A stretch of 37,864 bases of DNA from Bacillota bacterium (GCA_021846505.1 JAJZWV010000039.1:1-37864), one strand, 5' to 3'; positions 26,609 through 37,864 are shown, counted from the first letter of the stretch. Notes: a model not told the origin generated them from the letters alone. Numbers and translations are program-made.

Positions 26609-27379
26609 CTACGGGGACGTCGGCTGGGGCCGCCTCAGCCGGCGGAGCCAGGCGGCAATCGGATCGTAATGCTGGTCCGCGACTCGTTCCTTCAGCGGGA
26701 TAATGGCATCATGGGTGATCTCAATGCCCTCGGGACAGACGTCCGTGCAGCAGTGCGTCACGTTGCAAAGTCCCACGCCGGCCGCGCTATGAAGCAAGTC
26801 GGTGCGCGACGCGGTGTCCATCGGATGCATTTCCAGCTCGGCGATCCGCACCATCAGCTGGGGACCCCAATACTGCCCAAACAGGCCGTGTTCGCGCAAG
26901 ACGTGACAGACATCTTGGCACAAGAAGCACTCAATACACCGATGGAATTCTTCAACGCGGTCCACCTCCCACTGCTGCAAGTGAAACGGAGGGGGTTCCG
27001 CCGGACGAAAGCCGGGCACGAGCTCTTCCGCTCGCTCATAATTCCAGGACACATCGGACACGAGGTCACGAATGATAGGAAAAGTGCGGAGCGGATGCAC
27101 ATGAATGTCCAGGGACCCATATGCATCGAGGCGCGTTTTGCAGAACAAGCGCGGTTCCCCATTGATCTCGCCCGAGCACGACCCGCAGTGGGCCGCTTTG
27201 CAGTTCCAGCGCACGGCCAGGTCGGGAGCTTCGTGCGCCTGAATGAAGTGCAAGGCATCAAGCACCACCATTCCGGGCACCACCGGCACGCGATAGGCCA
27301 CCTCTTCACCCTGATAGTCATCGCCGCGATAAACATAGAGAACCCGTTCCTTCCCCGGAACGGCACTCCGCTCCATCAT
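26609..27379 (-). CDS. sdhB: Succinate dehydrogenase/fumarate reductase iron-sulfur subunit
   Basis: A 256-residue electron-transfer subunit. The [2Fe-2S] ligands are Cys60, Cys65, Cys68 and Cys80 in a plant-ferredoxin-like domain (NCKAAHCGSCSG). The ferredoxin-like C-terminal domain has Cys148, 151, 154 and 158 (CIECFLCQDVC) and a second cluster with Cys205, 210/211 and 215 before Pro (CNVTHCCTDVCPEG), for the [4Fe-4S] and [3Fe-4S] centres. It carries electrons from the flavoprotein to the membrane subunit. ATG at 27379 overlaps the sdhA stop as ATGA, with GGAGGG seven bases upstream; a second ATG follows directly. The overall pattern resembles the actinobacterial Sdh1-type enzyme more than the classical SdhB. 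The direction (succinate oxidation or fumarate reduction) cannot be told. Confidence 0.92.
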   Translation of the reverse strand: MMERSAVPGKERVLYVYRGDDYQGEEVAYRVPVVPGMVVLDALHFIQAHEAPDLAVRWNCKAAHCGSCSGEINGEPRLFCKTRLDAYGSLDIHVHPLRTFPIIRDLVSDVSWNYERAEELVPGFRPAEPPPFHLQQWEVDRVEEFHRCIECFLCQDVCHVLREHGLFGQYWGPQLMVRIAELEMHPMDTASRTDLLHSAAGVGLCNVTHCCTDVCPEGIEITHDAIIPLKERVADQHYDPIAAWLRRLRRPQPTSP

Positions 27380-29139
27380 GATGGTGCCCTCCCTGTCACA
27401 TCTTGAGTGAGCGGGGCCAACACGCGCTGCTGCTGGGGCGTCACGGCAGCCACCGGCACGGTGCGGAGGCTGGGGCTTCCCCCGCGATCCCGCGTGATCA
27501 CTACGTTCTGCTTTCCCCAGGCCGCATCTTCCTCGGGAAAGTCCGTCCGGTAGTGCGCCCCGCGGCTTTCTGTTCGCTCCAGCGCGCTCCGCAGGATGGC
27601 CTCCCCCAACAGCAGCATGGCATCCAGCTCCAGTGCCAAGTTCCACCCGGGGTTGTACAGCGTCCCGCCTGGCGCGGCGAGCCGTGCCGCCCGCTCCTGC
27701 ATCTCCAACACCTGCTGCAGCCCGTTCTGCAGGCCGGGTCCACTCCGGACAATGCCGCCGCACCGCGTCATCACCTCCTGGAGCGCACTGTGCAGCCCAT
27801 AGGGACTTGGGCCCAGCGGCTGCCGCAGGGGCGCGAGCACGCGCGCGACTTCCTCTTCAATCTCGCTGGCCGCCACCACCGGCAGATGGACAGACGCCGC
27901 GGCAAATCGCGCCGCCGCGTCGCCCGCCCGCTTGCCAAACACAAGCAGATCCGCCAGGGAATTGCCACCCAGCCGATTGGCCCCATGCAGGCCGGCCGCC
28001 ACTTCACCGGCGGCAAACAAACCGGGCACCCGCGTGGCGCAGGTGTCCGGGTCGACCCGCACGCCCCCCATCATGTAGTGGCAGGTTGGAGCCACCTCCA
28101 TGGCTTCACGCGTGATGTCCACATCGGCCAAGGCGAGAAACTGGGCGCGCATGCTGGGCAGCTTGCGGCTGATGAACGCCGCGCCGCGGGCGGTAATGTC
28201 GAGACGCGCCCCGCCGTGCGGCGTCCCGCGCCCGGCCTGCACTTCCTGGTAGATGGCGCGCGCGACAACATCCCGGGACGACAATTCCATTCGCTTGGGG
28301 TCATAATCCGCCATAAACCGCCGCCCTTGGGCGTTGAGCAAAATCCCGCCTTCGCCCCGCACGCCTTCGGTGACCAAGAGACCGCGAACACCCGGCGGCC
28401 ACACCATGCCGGTGGGATGGAATTGGACCATCTCCATATCCATCAAATCGGCCCCGGCGGCAAACGCCAGGGCGGTGCCATCGCCGGTGCTCTCCCACGA
28501 ATTGGATGTCACGGCGTAAACGCGCCCCCACCCCCCGGTTGCCAGTACAATGGCCGGGGCGCGAAGCAAGACAAACCGCCCATCGACCCGCCGGTAAGCG
28601 AGCGCCCCCGCCATCCCGCTGTCGTCACGGAACAGCCGGGTGACAATCACCTCAGGGTAAAACGCTACGCCCAACTGGGTCACCCGATTTTGGAGCGTGC
28701 GCAGCAGCTCTTTGCCCGTGTGGTCGCCGACATGGCACAGACGGCGGTAGGAATGGGCGCCAAACGCCCGTTGAAGGATCTGGCCCGCGGGCGTGCGGTC
28801 AAACACGGCCCCCCACCTCTCCAATTCCCACACGCGCTCGGGCGCCTCCGCCGTCAGCAGCTCCGCCATGCGCGCGCTGTTGACGAAGTGCCCGCTCTTC
28901 ATGGTGTCGCGAAAGTGAACGTCCGGGCTGTCTTCGGCGTCGAGATGCCCCAGCGCCGCAGCCACGCCGCCCTCCGCCATGACGGTGTGCGCTTTGCCCA
29001 GCAGGCTCTTGCTCACCACGCCCACGGACAGCCCAACCTCCGAGACGGCCACGGCTGCCCGCAGGCCCGCGCCGCCAGCCCCGATCACCAGCACGTCGTG
29101 CCGCAGGGTCTCCCACGCCTGCCCGCCGGCGGCAGTCAT
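27376..29139 (-). CDS. sdhA: Succinate dehydrogenase/fumarate reductase flavoprotein subunit
   Basis: A 587-residue flavoprotein. The FAD Rossmann motif is VLVIGAGGAGLRAA (16-29). His51 in LGKAHTVMAEGG fits the covalent FAD-histidyl position. Substrate-site segments include FHPTGM (typical quinone-linked SDH/FRD sequence), HYMMGGVRVD, and GLFAAGEVAAGLHGANRLGGNSLADLLVFG near residues 385-415. It oxidises succinate to fumarate or the reverse. ATG at 29139 overlaps the stop of the membrane-subunit gene as ATGA, and the open frame upstream of it is the antiphase shadow of that gene. At 587 residues it is of normal length. It works as a complex with the products of the genes on either side. Confidence 0.94.
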   Translation of the reverse strand: MTAAGGQAWETLRHDVLVIGAGGAGLRAAVAVSEVGLSVGVVSKSLLGKAHTVMAEGGVAAALGHLDAEDSPDVHFRDTMKSGHFVNSARMAELLTAEAPERVWELERWGAVFDRTPAGQILQRAFGAHSYRRLCHVGDHTGKELLRTLQNRVTQLGVAFYPEVIVTRLFRDDSGMAGALAYRRVDGRFVLLRAPAIVLATGGWGRVYAVTSNSWESTGDGTALAFAAGADLMDMEMVQFHPTGMVWPPGVRGLLVTEGVRGEGGILLNAQGRRFMADYDPKRMELSSRDVVARAIYQEVQAGRGTPHGGARLDITARGAAFISRKLPSMRAQFLALADVDITREAMEVAPTCHYMMGGVRVDPDTCATRVPGLFAAGEVAAGLHGANRLGGNSLADLLVFGKRAGDAAARFAAASVHLPVVAASEIEEEVARVLAPLRQPLGPSPYGLHSALQEVMTRCGGIVRSGPGLQNGLQQVLEMQERAARLAAPGGTLYNPGWNLALELDAMLLLGEAILRSALERTESRGAHYRTDFPEEDAAWGKQNVVITRDRGGSPSLRTVPVAAVTPQQQRVLAPLTQDVTGRAPS

Positions 29140-29903
29140 TTGAGCAGCCTCACATCGGGAATGATGTGGGCCAGCAGGAGGCGAATATAGACGTCGGTGG
29201 CCCACACACTCATCATCGACGCCCACGCCCAACGGCCATGATGGCGATTCCACCGGGAGATGCGCTGCCACCATCGGAATCGGACCGGAGGGCGCACAGC
29301 CTCGATGCCGCGCGGGCAGGCGAAGCAGTCGCGGCTCCCACCGATGAGGTGTCGAAACGCGTGGCACGACAACGTGTAGGCGGTCAGCAGGACGACGTTC
29401 CCGAGCATAATGACGGACCCGACCCCTACACCGAACTGGCCCTGAAAGATGAAGGCCGACACCGTGTCTTTCCACAGAAAGAGCAACACGATGGCGGCCA
29501 AGTACCACCAGTAGCGATGCCAGTTGCTCACCACCCAGGGCCATGCCCGCTCTCCCGTGTATGCCCGTTCCGGCCGCTCGGGTGCGCCGCACGTAAAGGG
29601 GTCGGCGGCGAATGCATGATAGTATTCCCTCCGATAGTAGTAGCAGGTCCCCCTGAACAGCAGCGGAATCCACGCCACCAGCACGGCCGGCGCGAAGGGA
29701 ATGCCGAGCCACTGCCCCAGCGGAGGGGAGAAAAATGGCGAGAGGTAGTTATGGTATTGGCCTGTCCGTTCGAACACCACCACCCCGAAGGAATACAGGA
29801 CAAACGCCGAGAACACGACCAGTGTGGTGACGGACTGCGCCCACGGCGGCCAGTACCGCGTAGGGCTTGCGGTCGCCGATGCGGCCCGCACTGAGGATGG
29901 CAT
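29136..29903 (-). CDS. sdhC: Succinate dehydrogenase membrane anchor, Sdh1-type (five-helix)
   Basis: A 255-residue membrane protein with about five helices (25-45, 68-86, 130-150, 160-182, 228-248). Candidate heme or quinone-site histidines are His129 in SNWHRYWWY and His181/His185 in SCHAFRHL. The segments TCYYYRREYYHAF and WHRYWWYLAAIVLLFLWKD resemble the single-chain anchors of actinobacterial Sdh1-type complexes rather than classical SdhC/SdhD. A pair of cysteines in RDCFACPRG is unusual. The ATG at 29903 follows GGAGGAGGGGGAG. First gene of the sdhC-sdhA-sdhB-(ubiE) group, with a 510-base region upstream. The family call is from these motifs and operon position. Confidence 0.85.
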   Translation of the reverse strand: MPSSVRAASATASPTRYWPPWAQSVTTLVVFSAFVLYSFGVVVFERTGQYHNYLSPFFSPPLGQWLGIPFAPAVLVAWIPLLFRGTCYYYRREYYHAFAADPFTCGAPERPERAYTGERAWPWVVSNWHRYWWYLAAIVLLFLWKDTVSAFIFQGQFGVGVGSVIMLGNVVLLTAYTLSCHAFRHLIGGSRDCFACPRGIEAVRPPVRFRWWQRISRWNRHHGRWAWASMMSVWATDVYIRLLLAHIIPDVRLLK

Positions 29904-30413
29904 TGATGCTCCCCCTCCTCCAAATCGGCAGCGAACAGATCGAGAACCACGTGCTGCCCTGCCATGGACGCTGCATGCAGCCGATAACCGTCGATGCCTC
30001 ATCTCCACCGCATACGTGGCGGTGGTCGTGCGACCAGTCAGCCAGCGGGCGCAGGCAAGTTTCTCTACACACATGAGCGTAGCCCACCCCTGTTTTTGCC
30101 GCGACGGGCAGTTGGGCAGACTTTTGGGGCATTCTGGTGAGCTGCCCCTACGCCGTTTGGGTCATCGCACCAGGGTCGCGCCATCGTCTCGCTGGCGGCT
30201 AATGCCGCGTTCACGGTGACCGTGTGGTGCCGAAGATAGCGCTCCCTGAGCCTTGTTGAATAGGAAACCTGTTCATACTCTTAAGTGGGAGTTCACCGAG
30301 TCGGTGATGTCTGACACCGTGCGTTGACTGGGGGATTGTTCGCGGACGAAAGACGAACAAAAGGTGGTCCATTGTGCAGTTCCAGACGCTAGGACAAGGG
30401 GAGGACATACACG
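29904..30413. other. Divergent intergenic region between sdhC and the sulfur module
   Basis: This 510-base gap has no convincing gene. It holds several inverted repeats: CCACCGC/GCGGTGG at 30005-30011 and 30019-30025, GGTCG/CGACC at 30024-30035, CACGGT-G-ACCGTG at 30212-30224, and TCACCGA-G-TCGGTGA at 30293-30307. A weak plus-strand promoter candidate is TTGTTG (30253-30258) with CATACT (30274-30279), spacing 15. No clear minus-strand promoter for sdhC was found. The first two repeats would lie in the sdhC leader. Confidence 0.45.
30293..30307. promoter_or_regulatory. Perfect 15-base palindrome upstream of the sulfur module, candidate operator
   Basis: TCACCGA and TCGGTGA are exact inverse complements around a single G. 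The site lies 107 bases before the DsrE2 ATG and just downstream of a weak promoter candidate ending at 30279, the place a repressor site would be expected. A smaller perfect palindrome, CACGGT-G-ACCGTG, lies about 80 bases upstream (30212-30224). Confidence 0.4.
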
Positions 30414-30794
30414 ATGAATCTCATCCTGCTGTCAGGCGACTACGCTAAGATTCACGCGGCCGCAATGTTGGCGGTGGTGGCCTCCAGCTTGGACATGCCA
30501 GTGAATGTGTTCGTGTCGATGGAGGCGTTGCCTGCGTTTCACGGCGATCCAGCGATTCGGGCGACCGTCGGCATGGGTCAGGTTGGCCACAAGTTGAAGG
30601 ATTCAGGCGGGGACGACTACCTGGGTCTTCTGGACCAAGCCAAAAGCTTTGGAACGGTCACCGTATACGCCTGCAGTCTGGTGGCGGACCTCTACGGGTG
30701 GACGCTGGAGGATTTGGTGCCGACCTTTGACGACATGATGGGCGTCGCCGGGTTTCTCGGCAAGGCATCCACCGGGACCACCATCGCCCTGTAG
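30414..30794 (+). CDS. DsrE2-like sulfur carrier protein
   Basis: A 126-residue DsrE/DsrF-like protein. The N-terminal strand is MNLILLSGDY, with PVNVFVSMEAL after the first helix. The single cysteine, Cys87 in VTVYACSLVADLYGW, is the conserved persulfide-carrying position of the DsrE2/DsrE3 group. The C-terminal GVAGFLGKAS helix fits the family. These proteins bind sulfane sulfur and pass it to or from TusA in the cytoplasm. The ATG follows GGGGAGG at nine bases. It is first in a four-gene set with TusA, a sulfide:quinone oxidoreductase-like protein and DUF1641, so it probably belongs to a sulfur-oxidation relay. No transmembrane segment is apparent, unlike some DsrE2 proteins. Confidence 0.85.
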   Translation: MNLILLSGDYAKIHAAAMLAVVASSLDMPVNVFVSMEALPAFHGDPAIRATVGMGQVGHKLKDSGGDDYLGLLDQAKSFGTVTVYACSLVADLYGWTLEDLVPTFDDMMGVAGFLGKASTGTTIAL

Positions 30795-30812
30795 TACCGG
30801 ACAGTGCACGCA

Positions 30813-30842
30813 GCCTGCCGGGCGCAGTGACGGCCGGCAGGC
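30813..30842 (+). repeat. Perfect 9-bp hairpin between dsrE2-like and tusA genes
   Basis: GCCTGCCGG (30813-30821) and CCGGCAGGC (30834-30842) form a perfect stem with a 12-base loop. It starts 18 bases after the DsrE2 stop and ends 32 bases before the TusA ATG. It could stabilise the upstream message or tune the ratio of the two proteins by partial termination. No U tract follows. Confidence 0.45.
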
Positions 30843-30874
30843 AAGCGGGCATCCACAAGCGAAGGGAGCTGCGG

Positions 30875-31105
30875 ATGGACACGGCAAAAATCGTGGATGC
30901 GCGGGGTTCTTATTGCCCCGGCCCCTTGATGGAGCTGATCAAAGGCATCCGCCGGGAGGCCATCGGCACGACGCTGGAAATATGGTCGTCGGATCGTGGG
31001 TCAGCCAAAGACATCCCGGAGTGGGCCGCTCGGGCTGGCCATGAGTTGGTGAGCAGCACGGAGGAGGACGGCATCTACAAGATCCAGGTGCGAAAAGCCC
31101 GGTAG
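30875..31105 (+). CDS. tusA: TusA-family sulfur carrier protein
   Basis: A 76-residue SirA/TusA-fold protein. The active-site motif is Cys14-Pro-Gly-Pro-Leu in RGSYCPGPLMELIK, and the rest (TLEIWSSDRGSAKDIPEWAARAGHELV) matches the two-layer alpha/beta fold. TusA carries persulfide sulfur to acceptors such as DsrE proteins or heterodisulfide-reductase-like complexes. In this setting it likely serves sulfur oxidation rather than tRNA thiolation, because it is between DsrE2 and a sulfide:quinone oxidoreductase. The ATG at 30875 has GAAGGGAG upstream; an in-frame ATG at 30827 overlaps the hairpin and is unlikely. Confidence 0.92.
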   Translation: MDTAKIVDARGSYCPGPLMELIKGIRREAIGTTLEIWSSDRGSAKDIPEWAARAGHELVSSTEEDGIYKIQVRKAR

Positions 31106-31155
31106 CGGCCGTCCAAACCGGTTTAGCGCAAACGCTGAGCAGAGGAGACGCACGA

Positions 31156-32295
31156 ATGAAGCGAGTGGTCATTCTAGGTGGCGGAACCGGGGGCACCATC
31201 GTCGCCAACCAGATGGTGCGTCAACTCCGCCAGGATATTGATGCCGGCGCGGTTGAGATCACGGTGGTTTCCAACACGGAGCAGCATGTTTACCAACCCT
31301 CCTTCCTGTATGTGGCGTTTGATCTAACGGCCCCGTCGGACGCCAAGCGTCCCGAGCGTCAGGTCTTGGACCGCCGGATTCGGCTTGTCCAGGGGGAAGC
31401 GGACCGCGTGGACCCCAGAGAACACGCGGTGGTCATGTCAGACGGCGTGCAACTTCCATACGACTTCTTGGTGATTGCGACGGGCAGCCGTCCCGCTCCC
31501 GAGGAAATCGAGGGATTGGCTGAAGGGGGCCATCACTTCTACACGGAGGAAGGGGCGCTTAAGCTGCGTGAGGCTCTCCAATCCTTCACCGGAGGACGAG
31601 TGGTCCTCGTGGTCGGCGTTCCCCACAAGTGTCCGGTCGCTCCCTTGGAATTCACGCTGATGTTACATGATTGGCTGGCCGCACGAGGATTGGGGCCGTC
31701 CAGCCAGATCGTGTACACCTATCCGATCGGCCGCCCCCATTCACTTGAAGGCGTGTCGGATTGGGTCAAGCCGGTGTTTGAGGCCCGCGGCATTGACTCG
31801 CACATCTTCTTTAATCCCGAGCTCGTCGACCCCGTCGCCGGTACCGTCACCAGCCTCGAAGGTGAAACGCTGTCCTATGACCTTCTGGTCGCGGTTCCTC
31901 CGCATGTGGGACAAGAGGTGATTGCACGCTCGGGTCTGGGTGACAGCGGCAATTGGGTGCCCACCGACCGCCATTCGCTGCTCATGCAGGGAACCGACGA
32001 TGTTTACGTGCTGGGCGACGCCACGAACCTTCCCATCAGCAAAGCTGGCTCCACCGCCCATTTCCAAGCCGACGTGGTGGCGGGCAACATCGTCCAGCGC
32101 CTCCGTGGCGGACACGGATCGCTGCGCTACGATGGGAAGGTGTTCTGCTTTATCGAAACCAGTCTCAGGAAGGCCACCTACATCACGTTCGACTACCAGC
32201 GCCCGCCCCAGCCCGTCGTTTCTGGCTCGTTGCTTCACCTATACAAGTTAGCGTTTAACCACATGTACTGGCTGTCGGCGGCAGGCATTTTGTAG
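31156..32295 (+). CDS. Sulfide:quinone oxidoreductase-like FAD protein
   Basis: A 379-residue flavoprotein of the SQR/flavocytochrome c sulfide dehydrogenase family. FAD motif GGGTGGTIVA (8-17), second dinucleotide region VIATGSRP (106-113), FAD-binding VYVLGDATNLPISKAGS. The only two cysteines are Cys159 in GVPHKCPVAPLE and Cys331 in VFCFIET, at the two redox-disulfide positions of SQR. The C-terminal LYKLAFNHMYWLSAAG is the amphipathic membrane-docking part. It would oxidise sulfide or a carrier-bound persulfide and reduce the (mena)quinone pool. ATG at 31156 follows AGAGGAGA. Neighbours DsrE2, TusA and DUF1641 suggest the sulfur product is handed to protein carriers. Related non-SQR oxidoreductases exist, so activity is probable, not proved. 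Confidence 0.88.
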   Translation: MKRVVILGGGTGGTIVANQMVRQLRQDIDAGAVEITVVSNTEQHVYQPSFLYVAFDLTAPSDAKRPERQVLDRRIRLVQGEADRVDPREHAVVMSDGVQLPYDFLVIATGSRPAPEEIEGLAEGGHHFYTEEGALKLREALQSFTGGRVVLVVGVPHKCPVAPLEFTLMLHDWLAARGLGPSSQIVYTYPIGRPHSLEGVSDWVKPVFEARGIDSHIFFNPELVDPVAGTVTSLEGETLSYDLLVAVPPHVGQEVIARSGLGDSGNWVPTDRHSLLMQGTDDVYVLGDATNLPISKAGSTAHFQADVVAGNIVQRLRGGHGSLRYDGKVFCFIETSLRKATYITFDYQRPPQPVVSGSLLHLYKLAFNHMYWLSAAGIL

Positions 32296-32309
32296 AGAGA
32301 AGGGCACGC

Positions 32310-33074
32310 GTGGCAACAGTGCAGGTGCCGCAGGAGGTTTTGCGGGAGTGGGCGCAAGCCCTCAGCGCGGTGAGGGCGCAAGTACCGCCGCCCATGGCCC
32401 AGCAGGTGGCGTCCATCGTCACTGTCCTGACGGCATGGGCAAGTGGGCAGGAGTCGGCGGGCACAGCCCCCATGGAGGCGAACCCCGTCCCCGCCCTCAC
32501 GCCAGCGACCGCTGCAGCACCGCTCGAGGCAGCGGCGTCAGCGCTAACCGCCGAATTATCGAGCGTGGCGTCCGCCGTCGCCGACAGCGTGACGCCCGCG
32601 CTGGTGGAGCGTGTGACGGCGCTGCTCACGGAATTCGGCGTCATCGGCAGCCGCCTCGCCTCGCCCGCTGGACTGGGTTTGGTGGAGAGCGTCGCCGACC
32701 AGGCCCAGGAGCTGACCCAGCTGCTTCGCCAAATGTTGGCCTGGCAAGCGAATGGAACATGGGTATTGGTGGAAAACACCGTTGCCCTCGTCAAGGCGCT
32801 GCAAGACTCCGTCAGCCCCGCGCTGGCAGAGCGCGTCATAGACTTTCTGGTGCCCGTAGTGGGGTCGCTGAGCCAAATGGATTCGGCCGGCATGCTGGAA
32901 GCGGCCGTGCGCCTTGCCGAGGCGGCTCCCGACAGTCTGGCGCACGCCCGCGAGGATCGCCGCCGCCTAACGGTCGTTGCCCTCTTGCGCGAGGTACAAA
33001 ACCCTGAAGTCCAGCTGGGCATCAAGACCCTGCTGCAGATGCTGCGCCGACTTCCCTACGCCATTGAGGGCTGA
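32310..33074 (+). CDS. DUF1641 family protein
   Basis: A 254-residue protein. The C-terminal half matches the DUF1641 pattern, with a repeated Leu/Val-rich amphipathic helix layout (VALVKALQDSVSPALAERV, MLEAAVRLAE, then EVQNPEVQLGIKTLLQMLRRLP). DUF1641 genes commonly sit beside formate dehydrogenase or SQR-like genes. The N-terminal part (about 1-90) is an Ala/Pro/Val-rich linker with no clear fold. The start is GTG at 32310, with AGAAGGG seven to ten bases upstream, 14 bases after the SQR stop, so it is co-translated. It is largely helical and soluble or membrane-associated. A role as a scaffold linking SQR to the carriers is inference. Confidence 0.78.
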   Translation: MATVQVPQEVLREWAQALSAVRAQVPPPMAQQVASIVTVLTAWASGQESAGTAPMEANPVPALTPATAAAPLEAAASALTAELSSVASAVADSVTPALVERVTALLTEFGVIGSRLASPAGLGLVESVADQAQELTQLLRQMLAWQANGTWVLVENTVALVKALQDSVSPALAERVIDFLVPVVGSLSQMDSAGMLEAAVRLAEAAPDSLAHAREDRRRLTVVALLREVQNPEVQLGIKTLLQMLRRLPYAIEG

Positions 33075-37009: not shown

Positions 37010-37864
37010 ATGGAGCTGCTGAAGCCGACGGTGGATCTGGCGTTTCACCGCATGTTGAGCCAAGCCGGGAACGAGCCCGTGTTGCTTGACTTGCTGAATG
37101 CAGTGTTGGTGTCATCCGGCGATCGGCCCGCCACGGGCGTCACGGTCATGAACCCGCGCATTGAGCCGCGCACGGCGACTGACAGAGCCGCGGTGCTGGA
37201 CGTGCGGGCCACGCTGGCCGACGGGCGATCTGCCAACGTTGAGATGCAAGTGGTGAATCAGGGCGACTGGGCCGCGCGAAGCCTATACTATTGGGCCCGG
37301 CTGTTTGCCGACCAGCTGACGACCGCCATGCCGTACCGCCAGCTCACCCCCACGATCTCGGTAGGGGTGCTGAGCTTTCGCCTGTGGCCCGGCGGACCCT
37401 TTCACCACACGTTTCGTCTTCGCGCGGACCATGACCCGGCTATGGTCTGGAGCGATCACCTCGCGCTGCATACCGTGGAGCTGAAGAAGTTGCCTGAATC
37501 GTTTCGCCCCGAAGATGAAGAGTTGGTGCGGTGGATGAAGTTCCTGATGGATGGGCCGCCTGGCCAGAAGGAGGAGATCGCGATGGAATCGCCCGCGATT
37601 CAGCAGGCACTGACGACCCTGGAGACCTTAAGCTACGACCAGGAGTTCCGCGCCTTGTACGAGGCACGCGAAAAGGCGCAGCGCGACCTCATTTCCATGC
37701 GCGCCGACGGCCTGGAGGAGGGTCGCGCGGAAGGTCGGGAAGAGGGCCGTGCCGAAGGTCGGGAAGAGGGCCGTGCCGAAGGTCGGGAGGAGGGCCGTGC
37801 CGAAGGTCGGGAGGAGGGCCGTGCCGAAGGTCGGGAGGAGGGCCGTGCCGAAGGTCGGGAGGAG
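37010..37864 (+). CDS. Rpn-family PD-(D/E)XK nuclease (partial at right edge)
   Basis: The frame opens with ATG at 37010, with GGGAGG eight bases upstream, and is still open at the window end (285 codons seen). The N-terminus MELLKPTVDLAFHRMLSQ matches the Rpn/PD-(D/E)XK nuclease-transposase family. DVRATLADGRSANVEMQV (about 64-81) holds the Asp and the Glu-x-Gln nuclease core, and YYWARLFADQL follows. Rpn proteins such as RpnA are DNases that promote recA-independent recombination. After about residue 240 the protein is a run of an 8-residue unit rich in Gly, Arg and Glu (GREEGRAE), encoded by the tandem DNA repeat at 37730-37864. It is predicted to be a charged helical tail. Its true end lies outside the window. 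Confidence 0.85.
   Translation, partial: MELLKPTVDLAFHRMLSQAGNEPVLLDLLNAVLVSSGDRPATGVTVMNPRIEPRTATDRAAVLDVRATLADGRSANVEMQVVNQGDWAARSLYYWARLFADQLTTAMPYRQLTPTISVGVLSFRLWPGGPFHHTFRLRADHDPAMVWSDHLALHTVELKKLPESFRPEDEELVRWMKFLMDGPPGQKEEIAMESPAIQQALTTLETLSYDQEFRALYEAREKAQRDLISMRADGLEEGRAEGREEGRAEGREEGRAEGREEGRAEGREEGRAEGREEGRAEGREE
37730..37864 (+). repeat. 24-bp in-frame tandem repeat at the 3' end of the Rpn gene
   Basis: The unit GAAGGTCGGGA(A/G)GAG plus GGCCGTGCC (24 bases) is repeated five times with a further 15 bases at the edge. The first two copies have GAAGAG and the later four GAGGAG, so the copies are nearly identical and probably recent. Each unit adds eight codons without a shift, so copy-number change would lengthen or shorten the protein tail rather than switch the gene off. 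Confidence 0.92.

What the first reader, a model, noticed from the sequence alone, without database searches (positions are those of the whole stretch)
30414..33074. DsrE2-TusA-SQR-DUF1641 sulfur-relay module
Four adjacent genes encode two persulfide carriers, a quinone-linked sulfide oxidase-like flavoprotein and DUF1641. The set suggests that sulfane sulfur from sulfide oxidation is passed by TusA and DsrE2 while electrons enter menaquinone. No Hdr-like complex is in the window, so the acceptor of the carried sulfur is open. Similar sets occur in sulfur-oxidising acidophiles such as Sulfobacillus, but the mechanism with DUF1641 is not established.
Basis: partly seen in the sequence, partly recalled or inferred. 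Interest (0 to 1): 0.6.

Follow-up and report, generated by a model that had tools for sequence, protein, structure and literature searches.

The report
Sulfide oxidase with quinone-coupling partner
Next to genes for two sulfur-carrier proteins, this Sulfobacillus-like bacterium encodes a sulfide-oxidising enzyme that in every relative examined across several phyla sits beside a helper protein related to the subunits that bring membrane quinones to three other respiratory enzymes, which suggests how such a loosely attached sulfide oxidase hands its electrons to the membrane.

Summary
The four genes are real: a DsrE2-family protein (single Cys87), TusA (Cys14), a type III-like sulfide:quinone oxidoreductase (SQR; redox Cys159 and Cys331) and a divergent DUF1641 protein, in one direction with small gaps. 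The order is conserved in Sulfobacillus. The invariant core is SQR plus DUF1641: in all 89 loci of this SQR clade (Bacillota, Actinomycetota, Alpha-/Gammaproteobacteria, Nitrospirae) DUF1641 follows SQR directly, while DsrE2 and TusA move or are missing. Profiles of these DUF1641 proteins pick out, at the top of the PDB list, ForE (menaquinone subunit of ForCE formate dehydrogenase), YjlC ('NDH-2 membrane coupling protein') and usually HucM (quinone stalk of Huc hydrogenase). So DUF1641 most likely couples SQR to membrane menaquinone; this is inferred, not assayed. New here: the partner is built of tandem ~74-residue helical units, mostly 2 to 5, three in the window. Many genomes with the module lack sHdr, so the acceptor varies. 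Verdict: new variant of a known kind, with a sharp testable mechanism.

The parts
30414..30794 (+). DsrE2-family (PF13686) persulfide carrier, 126 aa, single Cys87 (codon 30672-30674), no transmembrane helix by hydropathy
30875..31105 (+). TusA sulfur carrier, 76 aa, Cys14 in CPGP (codon 30914-30916)
31156..32295 (+). type III-like sulfide:quinone oxidoreductase, 379 aa, redox Cys159 (31630-31632) and Cys331 (32146-32148); C-terminus always 48 residues after the second Cys in this clade
32310..33074 (+). DUF1641-family partner, 254 aa, all-helical, related to ForE / YjlC / HucM
32346..32462 (+). first ~74-aa helical unit of the DUF1641 protein (residues 13-51, degenerate)
32553..32762 (+). second ~74-aa helical unit (residues 82-151)
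32778..32984 (+). third ~74-aa helical unit (residues 157-225)
32952..33053 (+). DUF1641 signature (residues 215-248, ...LLREVQNPEVQLGIKTLLQMLRRLP)

Best explanation
The operon encodes a two-subunit sulfide:quinone oxidoreductase with its own sulfur carriers. The flavoprotein oxidises sulfide through the Cys159-Cys331 pair and FAD; the DUF1641 subunit, a cofactor-less helical protein of the ForE/YjlC/HucM family, couples the flavoprotein to the membrane and to menaquinone, by tethering it and/or giving the quinone a hydrophobic path. The sulfane sulfur leaves as a persulfide on TusA (Cys14) and DsrE2 (Cys87) and in this organism is most likely handed to the LbpA-sHdr (type II) system encoded elsewhere in the genome. 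Shown here: gene content, conserved order, obligate SQR-DUF1641 pairing within the clade, conserved cysteines, predicted fold of the SQR, remote homology of DUF1641 to the three known coupling subunits, presence of sHdr and MenB. Inferred: physical complex, quinone handling, direction of sulfur transfer.
For: SQR: both redox cysteines invariant in the clade; AlphaFold model pLDDT 94.6, Z 46 to human SQOR and 43 to Aquifex and Acidithiobacillus SQR. Pairing: DUF1641 directly downstream of SQR in 89 of 89 loci of the clade (median gap 15 nt), and the DUF1641 profile hits nothing else in those loci; 20 other SQRs of the phylum lack it; the 28 DUF1641-linked SQRs tested form one clade. Homology: profiles A3, A2 and A5 each put ForE1 and YjlC/'NDH-2 membrane coupling protein' (and, for A3 and A2, HucM) at the top of 177,635 PDB sequences, E 3e-11 to 2e-5 with A3. 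Function of relatives: ForE is required for menadione reduction and MK-7 retention by ForC (PMC8808070); HucM forms the stalk through which menaquinone reaches Huc (PMC10017518). NDH-2, the partner of YjlC, has the same fold as this SQR (9a63_B, Z 38), so both halves of the pair are homologous to both halves of a known pair. Co-expression: in Sulfobacillus thermotolerans adjacent locus tags BXT84_01945 (SQR, 379 aa) and BXT84_01950 (DUF1641, 335 aa) rise 5.8x and 2.2x on arsenopyrite concentrate (PMC7409299). sHdr cluster. MenB.
Against: No assay or co-purification is known to me for this pair. The window's DUF1641 alone does not reach the Pfam cut-off and alone finds no relative in the PDB. 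Its monomer model has low pTM (0.34) and no significant Foldseek match; the YjlC model appears only at Z 3.6. With profile A2 a designed helical repeat scores E=5e-5, so part of the signal is generic helix composition. SQRs without DUF1641 are numerous, so it is not needed for SQR chemistry as such. Several proteobacterial carriers of the pair may use ubiquinone rather than menaquinone (own knowledge, not tested).
Confidence: 0.68

Rival explanations
1. DUF1641 is only a scaffold: it oligomerises SQR or docks the sulfur carriers TusA/DsrE2 onto it, with no part in quinone access.
For: HucM is also needed for the Huc oligomer (PMC10017518) and ForE for ForC integrity (PMC8808070); arrays of helical units are typical docking surfaces.
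Against: SQR-DUF1641 pairs occur without any DsrE2 or TusA in 11 Nitrospirae/Leptospirillum loci, so carrier docking cannot be the general role; the characterised relatives ForE, HucM and (by its PDB name) YjlC all serve quinone-reducing enzymes.
Confidence: 0.18
2. The module is mainly for sulfide or metal stress (detoxifying sulfide, keeping sulfane sulfur bound) rather than for energy conservation through sHdr. This is a rival for the physiological role and can coexist with the proposed DUF1641 mechanism.
For: SQR and DUF1641 of S. thermotolerans rise on arsenical ore concentrate, and SQR with zinc (PMC7409299); many genomes with the module lack an sHdrB3 orthologue.
Against: This genome has a complete type II sHdr cluster, which Justice et al. 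found in all Sulfobacillus examined (PMC4378227).
Confidence: 0.3
3. Chance neighbours: four unrelated genes in one transcription unit.
For: None found beyond the weak Pfam score of DUF1641.
Against: All four genes together in 72 of 90 loci over several phyla, with rearranged orders that keep SQR-DUF1641 adjacent.
Confidence: 0.01

Closest known systems
ForCE formate dehydrogenase of Bacillus subtilis (ForE = YjgD/YrhD, DUF1641; PDB 8RQZ)
   Same: catalytic oxidoreductase plus cofactor-less DUF1641 subunit encoded next to it; electrons to menaquinone
   Different: catalytic subunit is a Mo-bisPGD formate dehydrogenase, not a flavoprotein; ForE is short (17-21 kDa) and not known to carry arrays of 74-aa units
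NDH-2 with YjlC ('NDH-2 membrane coupling protein', PDB 9PXK-9PXM, 9SNK, model 9A63)
   Same: single-FAD quinone reductase of the same fold as SQR, paired with a DUF1641 protein
   Different: substrate NADH instead of sulfide; no sulfur carriers; YjlC matches mainly in the DUF1641 signature region
Huc hydrogenase HucSL-HucM (PDB 7UUS)
   Same: HucM matches the profiles of these partners (E=2e-5 and 1e-7), at the DUF1641 signature and weakly in a half-unit; carries menaquinone from membrane to enzyme
   Different: [NiFe] hydrogenase; HucM is short; its tetrameric stalk is not shown for the SQR partner
Type III SQR and FCSD flavoproteins
   Same: fold, FAD, two redox cysteines
   Different: structurally known SQRs are not described with a DUF1641 subunit; this clade ends at a fixed point, level with FCSD and about 30 residues before the end of the Aquifex chain
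Type II sHdr cluster of Sulfobacillus (hdr cluster II of Justice et al. 2014)
   Same: present in this genome with the defining genes C1-B1-A-H-B3 and etfAB
   Different: on another contig, not linked to the SQR operon; has its own TusA

Membership tests
Sulfide:quinone oxidoreductase (type III) | FAD two-domain fold of the SQR/FCSD/NDH-2 superfamily | tested here: met
   model Z 46 to human SQOR, rmsd 2.2 over 373 residues
Sulfide:quinone oxidoreductase (type III) | two essential redox cysteines | tested here: met
   Cys159 and Cys331 invariant in A1, aligned with the two cysteines of human SQOR
Sulfide:quinone oxidoreductase (type III) | sulfide oxidation and quinone reduction | not testable with these tools
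   needs enzyme assay
Sulfide:quinone oxidoreductase (type III) | C-terminal amphipathic membrane helices | tested here: inconclusive
   one C-terminal helix 358-375; chain ends about 30 residues before that of Aquifex SQR, but several DUF1641-free SQRs are equally short
TusA | PF01206 with the conserved CPxP cysteine | tested here: met
   E 5e-21, CPGP at Cys14
DsrE2/DsrE3-like sulfurtransferase (PF13686) | family profile and conserved cysteine | tested here: met
   36.8 bits against cut-off 25; Cys87
DsrE2 in the strict (membrane-bound) sense | transmembrane segments | tested here: inconclusive
   no clear TM helix by hydropathy (max 1.69 over 19 residues); subtype DsrE2 versus DsrE3 not resolved
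DUF1641 (ForE/YjlC/HucM) quinone-coupling subunits | PF07849 signature | tested here: inconclusive
   window protein 14.2 bits, below 21; same-position relatives: 35 of 52 match at E<=0.01
DUF1641 (ForE/YjlC/HucM) quinone-coupling subunits | homology to solved members | tested here: met
   family profiles rank ForE1, YjlC and HucM first; the Sulfobacillus-type profile with the window protein ranks YjlC and ForE1 first, E 2e-5 to 1e-3
DUF1641 (ForE/YjlC/HucM) quinone-coupling subunits | encoded beside a quinone-reducing enzyme | tested here: met
   89/89 loci of the clade
DUF1641 (ForE/YjlC/HucM) quinone-coupling subunits | binds or conducts menaquinone, associates with membrane | not testable with these tools
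   needs purification and quinone analysis
Type II sHdr system (elsewhere in the genome) | shdrC1B1AHB3 and etfAB in one syntenic cluster (definition in PMC11582611) | tested here: met
   contig C70 13.5-25.6 kb: Fer4 protein (C1), HdrB1, sHdrA, hypothetical (H), Fer4+2xCCG protein (B3), EtfB, EtfA; H assigned by position only

The most novel reading that the evidence does not exclude
A HucM-like quinone conduit serves sulfide oxidation: the DUF1641 partner forms a membrane-bound stalk of tandem 74-residue units whose number (mostly 2 to 5) sets the reach between SQR and membrane, so that menaquinone is carried to a detached, possibly multimeric SQR.
Probability: 0.2. Interest if true: 0.82.

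Novelty: new variant of a known kind. Interest (0 to 1): 0.6.

Why it matters
It would add sulfide oxidation to formate, NADH and H2 oxidation as respiratory entry points that rely on a DUF1641 subunit to reach the quinone pool, making DUF1641 a general quinone-coupling module for cytoplasmic dehydrogenases. It gives a direct test of how peripheral SQRs in biomining acidophiles, magnetotactic bacteria and Leptospirillum deliver electrons, and joins SQR, TusA/DsrE2 and sHdr into one candidate route from sulfide to sulfite in Sulfobacillus-type bacteria. I found no paper in the held library that links DUF1641 to SQR mechanistically (9 papers name DUF1641).

Tried and rejected
(1) Idea that DUF1641 replaces a lost C-terminal membrane tail of SQR: the tail is fixed at 48 residues after Cys331 in 89/89 DUF1641-linked SQRs, and three neighbours without DUF1641 (L010-L012) have 82-84, but other DUF1641-free SQRs are equally short (L028, L030 also 48; L024, L026 alike), so loss of the tail does not separate the groups. 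(2) Fold search with the DUF1641 model: no significant Foldseek match; the VIA list is dominated by coiled coils. (3) Window DUF1641 protein alone against the PDB: only chance helical hits. (4) Viral contigs: no relative. (5) A human-type SQR with its own DUF1641 (L027) suggests independent recruitment, but only one more homologue was found in 249 genomes and it lacks DUF1641, so I do not build on it. (6) Sulfur oxygenase reductase: not found, but the control genomes were silent too, so absence is not shown. (8) Distance correlations of the four proteins (r 0.80-0.88) do not single out the SQR-DUF1641 pair and are not used as evidence of contact. (9) The cross-linking paper PMC10090944 does not name YjlC in its main text.

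Full report
OBSERVATION. The window is the whole contig C115 of a 3.58 Mb, 119-contig draft genome. At 30414-33074 (+) lie four genes in one direction: a DsrE2-family protein (PF13686), TusA (PF01206), an FAD-dependent SQR-type flavoprotein and a helical protein whose C-terminus resembles DUF1641. Gaps are 80, 50 and 14 nt. Cys87 of DsrE2, Cys14 of TusA and Cys159/Cys331 of the SQR are present; the DUF1641 protein has no cysteine. The DUF1641 match of the window protein is below Pfam's cut-off (14.2 of 21 bits), so it had to be established through relatives.

CONSERVATION. The SQR was searched in 249 genomes of the phylum, and an alignment of seven relatives (A1) in 84,980 species genomes (80 loci kept). 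The best named matches are Sulfobacillus harzensis, S. benefaciens and S. thermotolerans; others are Alicyclobacillaceae, Hazenella, Actinomycetota, Magnetospirillum, Magnetovibrio, Terasakiella, other Rhodospirillales, Gammaproteobacteria, Leptospirillum and other Nitrospirae. Iterated profiles for the four genes were run on all six-frame ORFs. In all 89 loci of this SQR clade a DUF1641-family ORF follows the SQR directly (median distance 15 nt, some overlapping), and the profile hits nothing else in those loci. DsrE2 is present in 72 and TusA in 78 of the 90 DUF1641-positive loci (the 90th is L027, a human-type SQR with its own DUF1641). The carriers stand upstream of SQR in 63 loci, downstream of DUF1641 in 7, and in mixed or partial arrangements elsewhere; 11 Nitrospirae/Leptospirillum loci have SQR-DUF1641 alone. 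Twenty other SQRs of the phylum have no DUF1641. The 28 DUF1641-linked SQRs placed in a tree form one clade with no DUF1641-free member inside (support 0.845). Selection caveat: the search query came from this clade, so these numbers describe the clade, not all SQRs.

WHAT DUF1641 IS. Of 52 partners, 35 match PF07849 at E<=0.01. Profiles of these partners against all PDB sequences rank first the 'NDH-2 membrane coupling protein' YjlC (9PXK, 9SNK), ForE1 (8RQZ) and HucM (7UUS): E=3e-11, 5e-7 and 2e-5 with A3, 2e-8, 4e-9 and 1e-7 with A2. With a profile of the Sulfobacillus-type sequences including the window protein, YjlC and ForE1 are again first (2e-5, 1e-3). The next hits are mostly designed helical proteins, a reminder that helix composition contributes (best 5e-5 with A2). 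In Bacillus subtilis ForE is required for formate:menadione activity and for MK-7 binding of ForC (PMC8808070); in Mycobacterium smegmatis HucM builds the stalk by which menaquinone travels 94 A from the membrane to Huc (PMC10017518). YjlC partners NDH-2, whose fold is that of SQR (9a63_B, Z 38 to the SQR model). So the SQR-DUF1641 pair is homologous on both sides to the NDH-2-YjlC pair.

The partners are built of a helical unit of about 74 residues (signature D-S-x-T-P-x-[MV]-x-E-R ... W-Q-x-x-G-T-W) in tandem: mostly two units in proteins of ~170-225 aa, three at ~240-267, four at 334-337, five at 408 (S. benefaciens AMDSBA4); among the closest relatives lengths step by 74 (alignment). A few divergent members show one unit and L027 none. 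The window protein has three, the first degenerate. HucM aligns weakly with half a unit as well as with the DUF1641 signature. Whether the number of units sets a stalk length is untested.

SQR. The model is confident (pLDDT 94.6, pTM 0.91) and matches human SQOR (Z 46, rmsd 2.2 over 373 residues), Aquifex and Acidithiobacillus SQR (Z 43) and FCSD (Z 42). The last residue superposes on residue 400 of Aquifex SQR, whose chain runs on about 30 residues, and on the end of FCSD. In all 89 sequences of the clade the chain ends exactly 48 residues after the second redox cysteine, nearly always as G-[ILV]-[LIMF]. Because some DUF1641-free SQRs are as short, I do not claim that DUF1641 replaces a lost tail.

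SULFUR ACCEPTOR. The genome has 19 CCG-domain matches and three TusA genes. Contig C70, 13.5-25.6 kb, holds a Fer4 protein (C1), HdrB1, sHdrA, a hypothetical (position of H), a Fer4+2xCCG protein (B3), two GcvH-like lipoate-binding proteins, a lipoate ligase, TusA, EtfB, EtfA and a 672-aa CCG/ferredoxin protein like the long membrane HdrC of Sulfobacillus. This meets the published definition of a type II sHdr system (PMC11582611) and resembles hdr cluster II, found in all Sulfobacillus examined (PMC4378227). Close B3 orthologues (74-78%) were found only in four Sulfobacillus-type genomes among 25 others that carry the module, so in other lineages the sulfur must go elsewhere. MenB is present.

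MECHANISM. Sulfide is oxidised on SQR; electrons pass by FAD to menaquinone reached through DUF1641; sulfane sulfur passes to TusA and DsrE2 and, in this organism, probably to LbpA-sHdr, whose electrons may leave through EtfAB and the 672-aa protein. Only the anatomy is shown. Independent support for co-expression: adjacent locus tags BXT84_01945 (SQR) and BXT84_01950 (DUF1641) of S. thermotolerans rise 5.8- and 2.2-fold on arsenopyrite concentrate (PMC7409299); that these are the L039 genes is inferred from the matching lengths (379 and 335 aa).

VERDICT. A real, conserved operon. The families are known; the obligate pairing of an SQR clade with a ForE/YjlC/HucM-type subunit, and its repeat architecture, I did not find described in the held literature. 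New variant of a known kind, interest 0.6.

Noticed in passing
G000 contig C70 (locus L123) 3.1-15.1 kb: Complete type II sHdr cluster with two lipoate-binding proteins, lipoate ligase, TusA, EtfAB and a 672-aa membrane-type HdrC/EMO-like protein in the same genome as the window.
   Followed up: yes
L016, L017, L018, L020: Related SQRs have an in-frame TGA at the position of the second redox cysteine (after ...GKGT/GKGL/GKGA), i.e. probable selenocysteine SQRs (NCBIfam NF049943 describes such a subtype).
   Followed up: partly
L027:1462-3248: A human-type (CPLVTG) SQR also followed directly by a DUF1641 gene of another subfamily without the 74-aa units; suggests a second recruitment.
   Followed up: partly
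window 26609-30074 (-): Succinate dehydrogenase/fumarate reductase-type iron-sulfur and flavoprotein genes and a membrane protein without Pfam match, divergent from the sulfur operon.
   Followed up: no
G000 contig C87 (L125:4512-5660): A second SQR/FCSD-like flavoprotein beside an MFS transporter, without DUF1641.
   Followed up: partly
window 37010-37864 (+): ORF ending in many EGR/AEGREE repeats runs into the contig end; it looks like an Rpn-type nuclease by eye, and the repeat may explain the assembly break.
   Followed up: no
L034:7123-8346, L039:7129-8133, L090:7148-7666: DUF1641 partners with 5, 4 and 2 tandem 74-aa units: a natural length series for structural work.
   Followed up: yes
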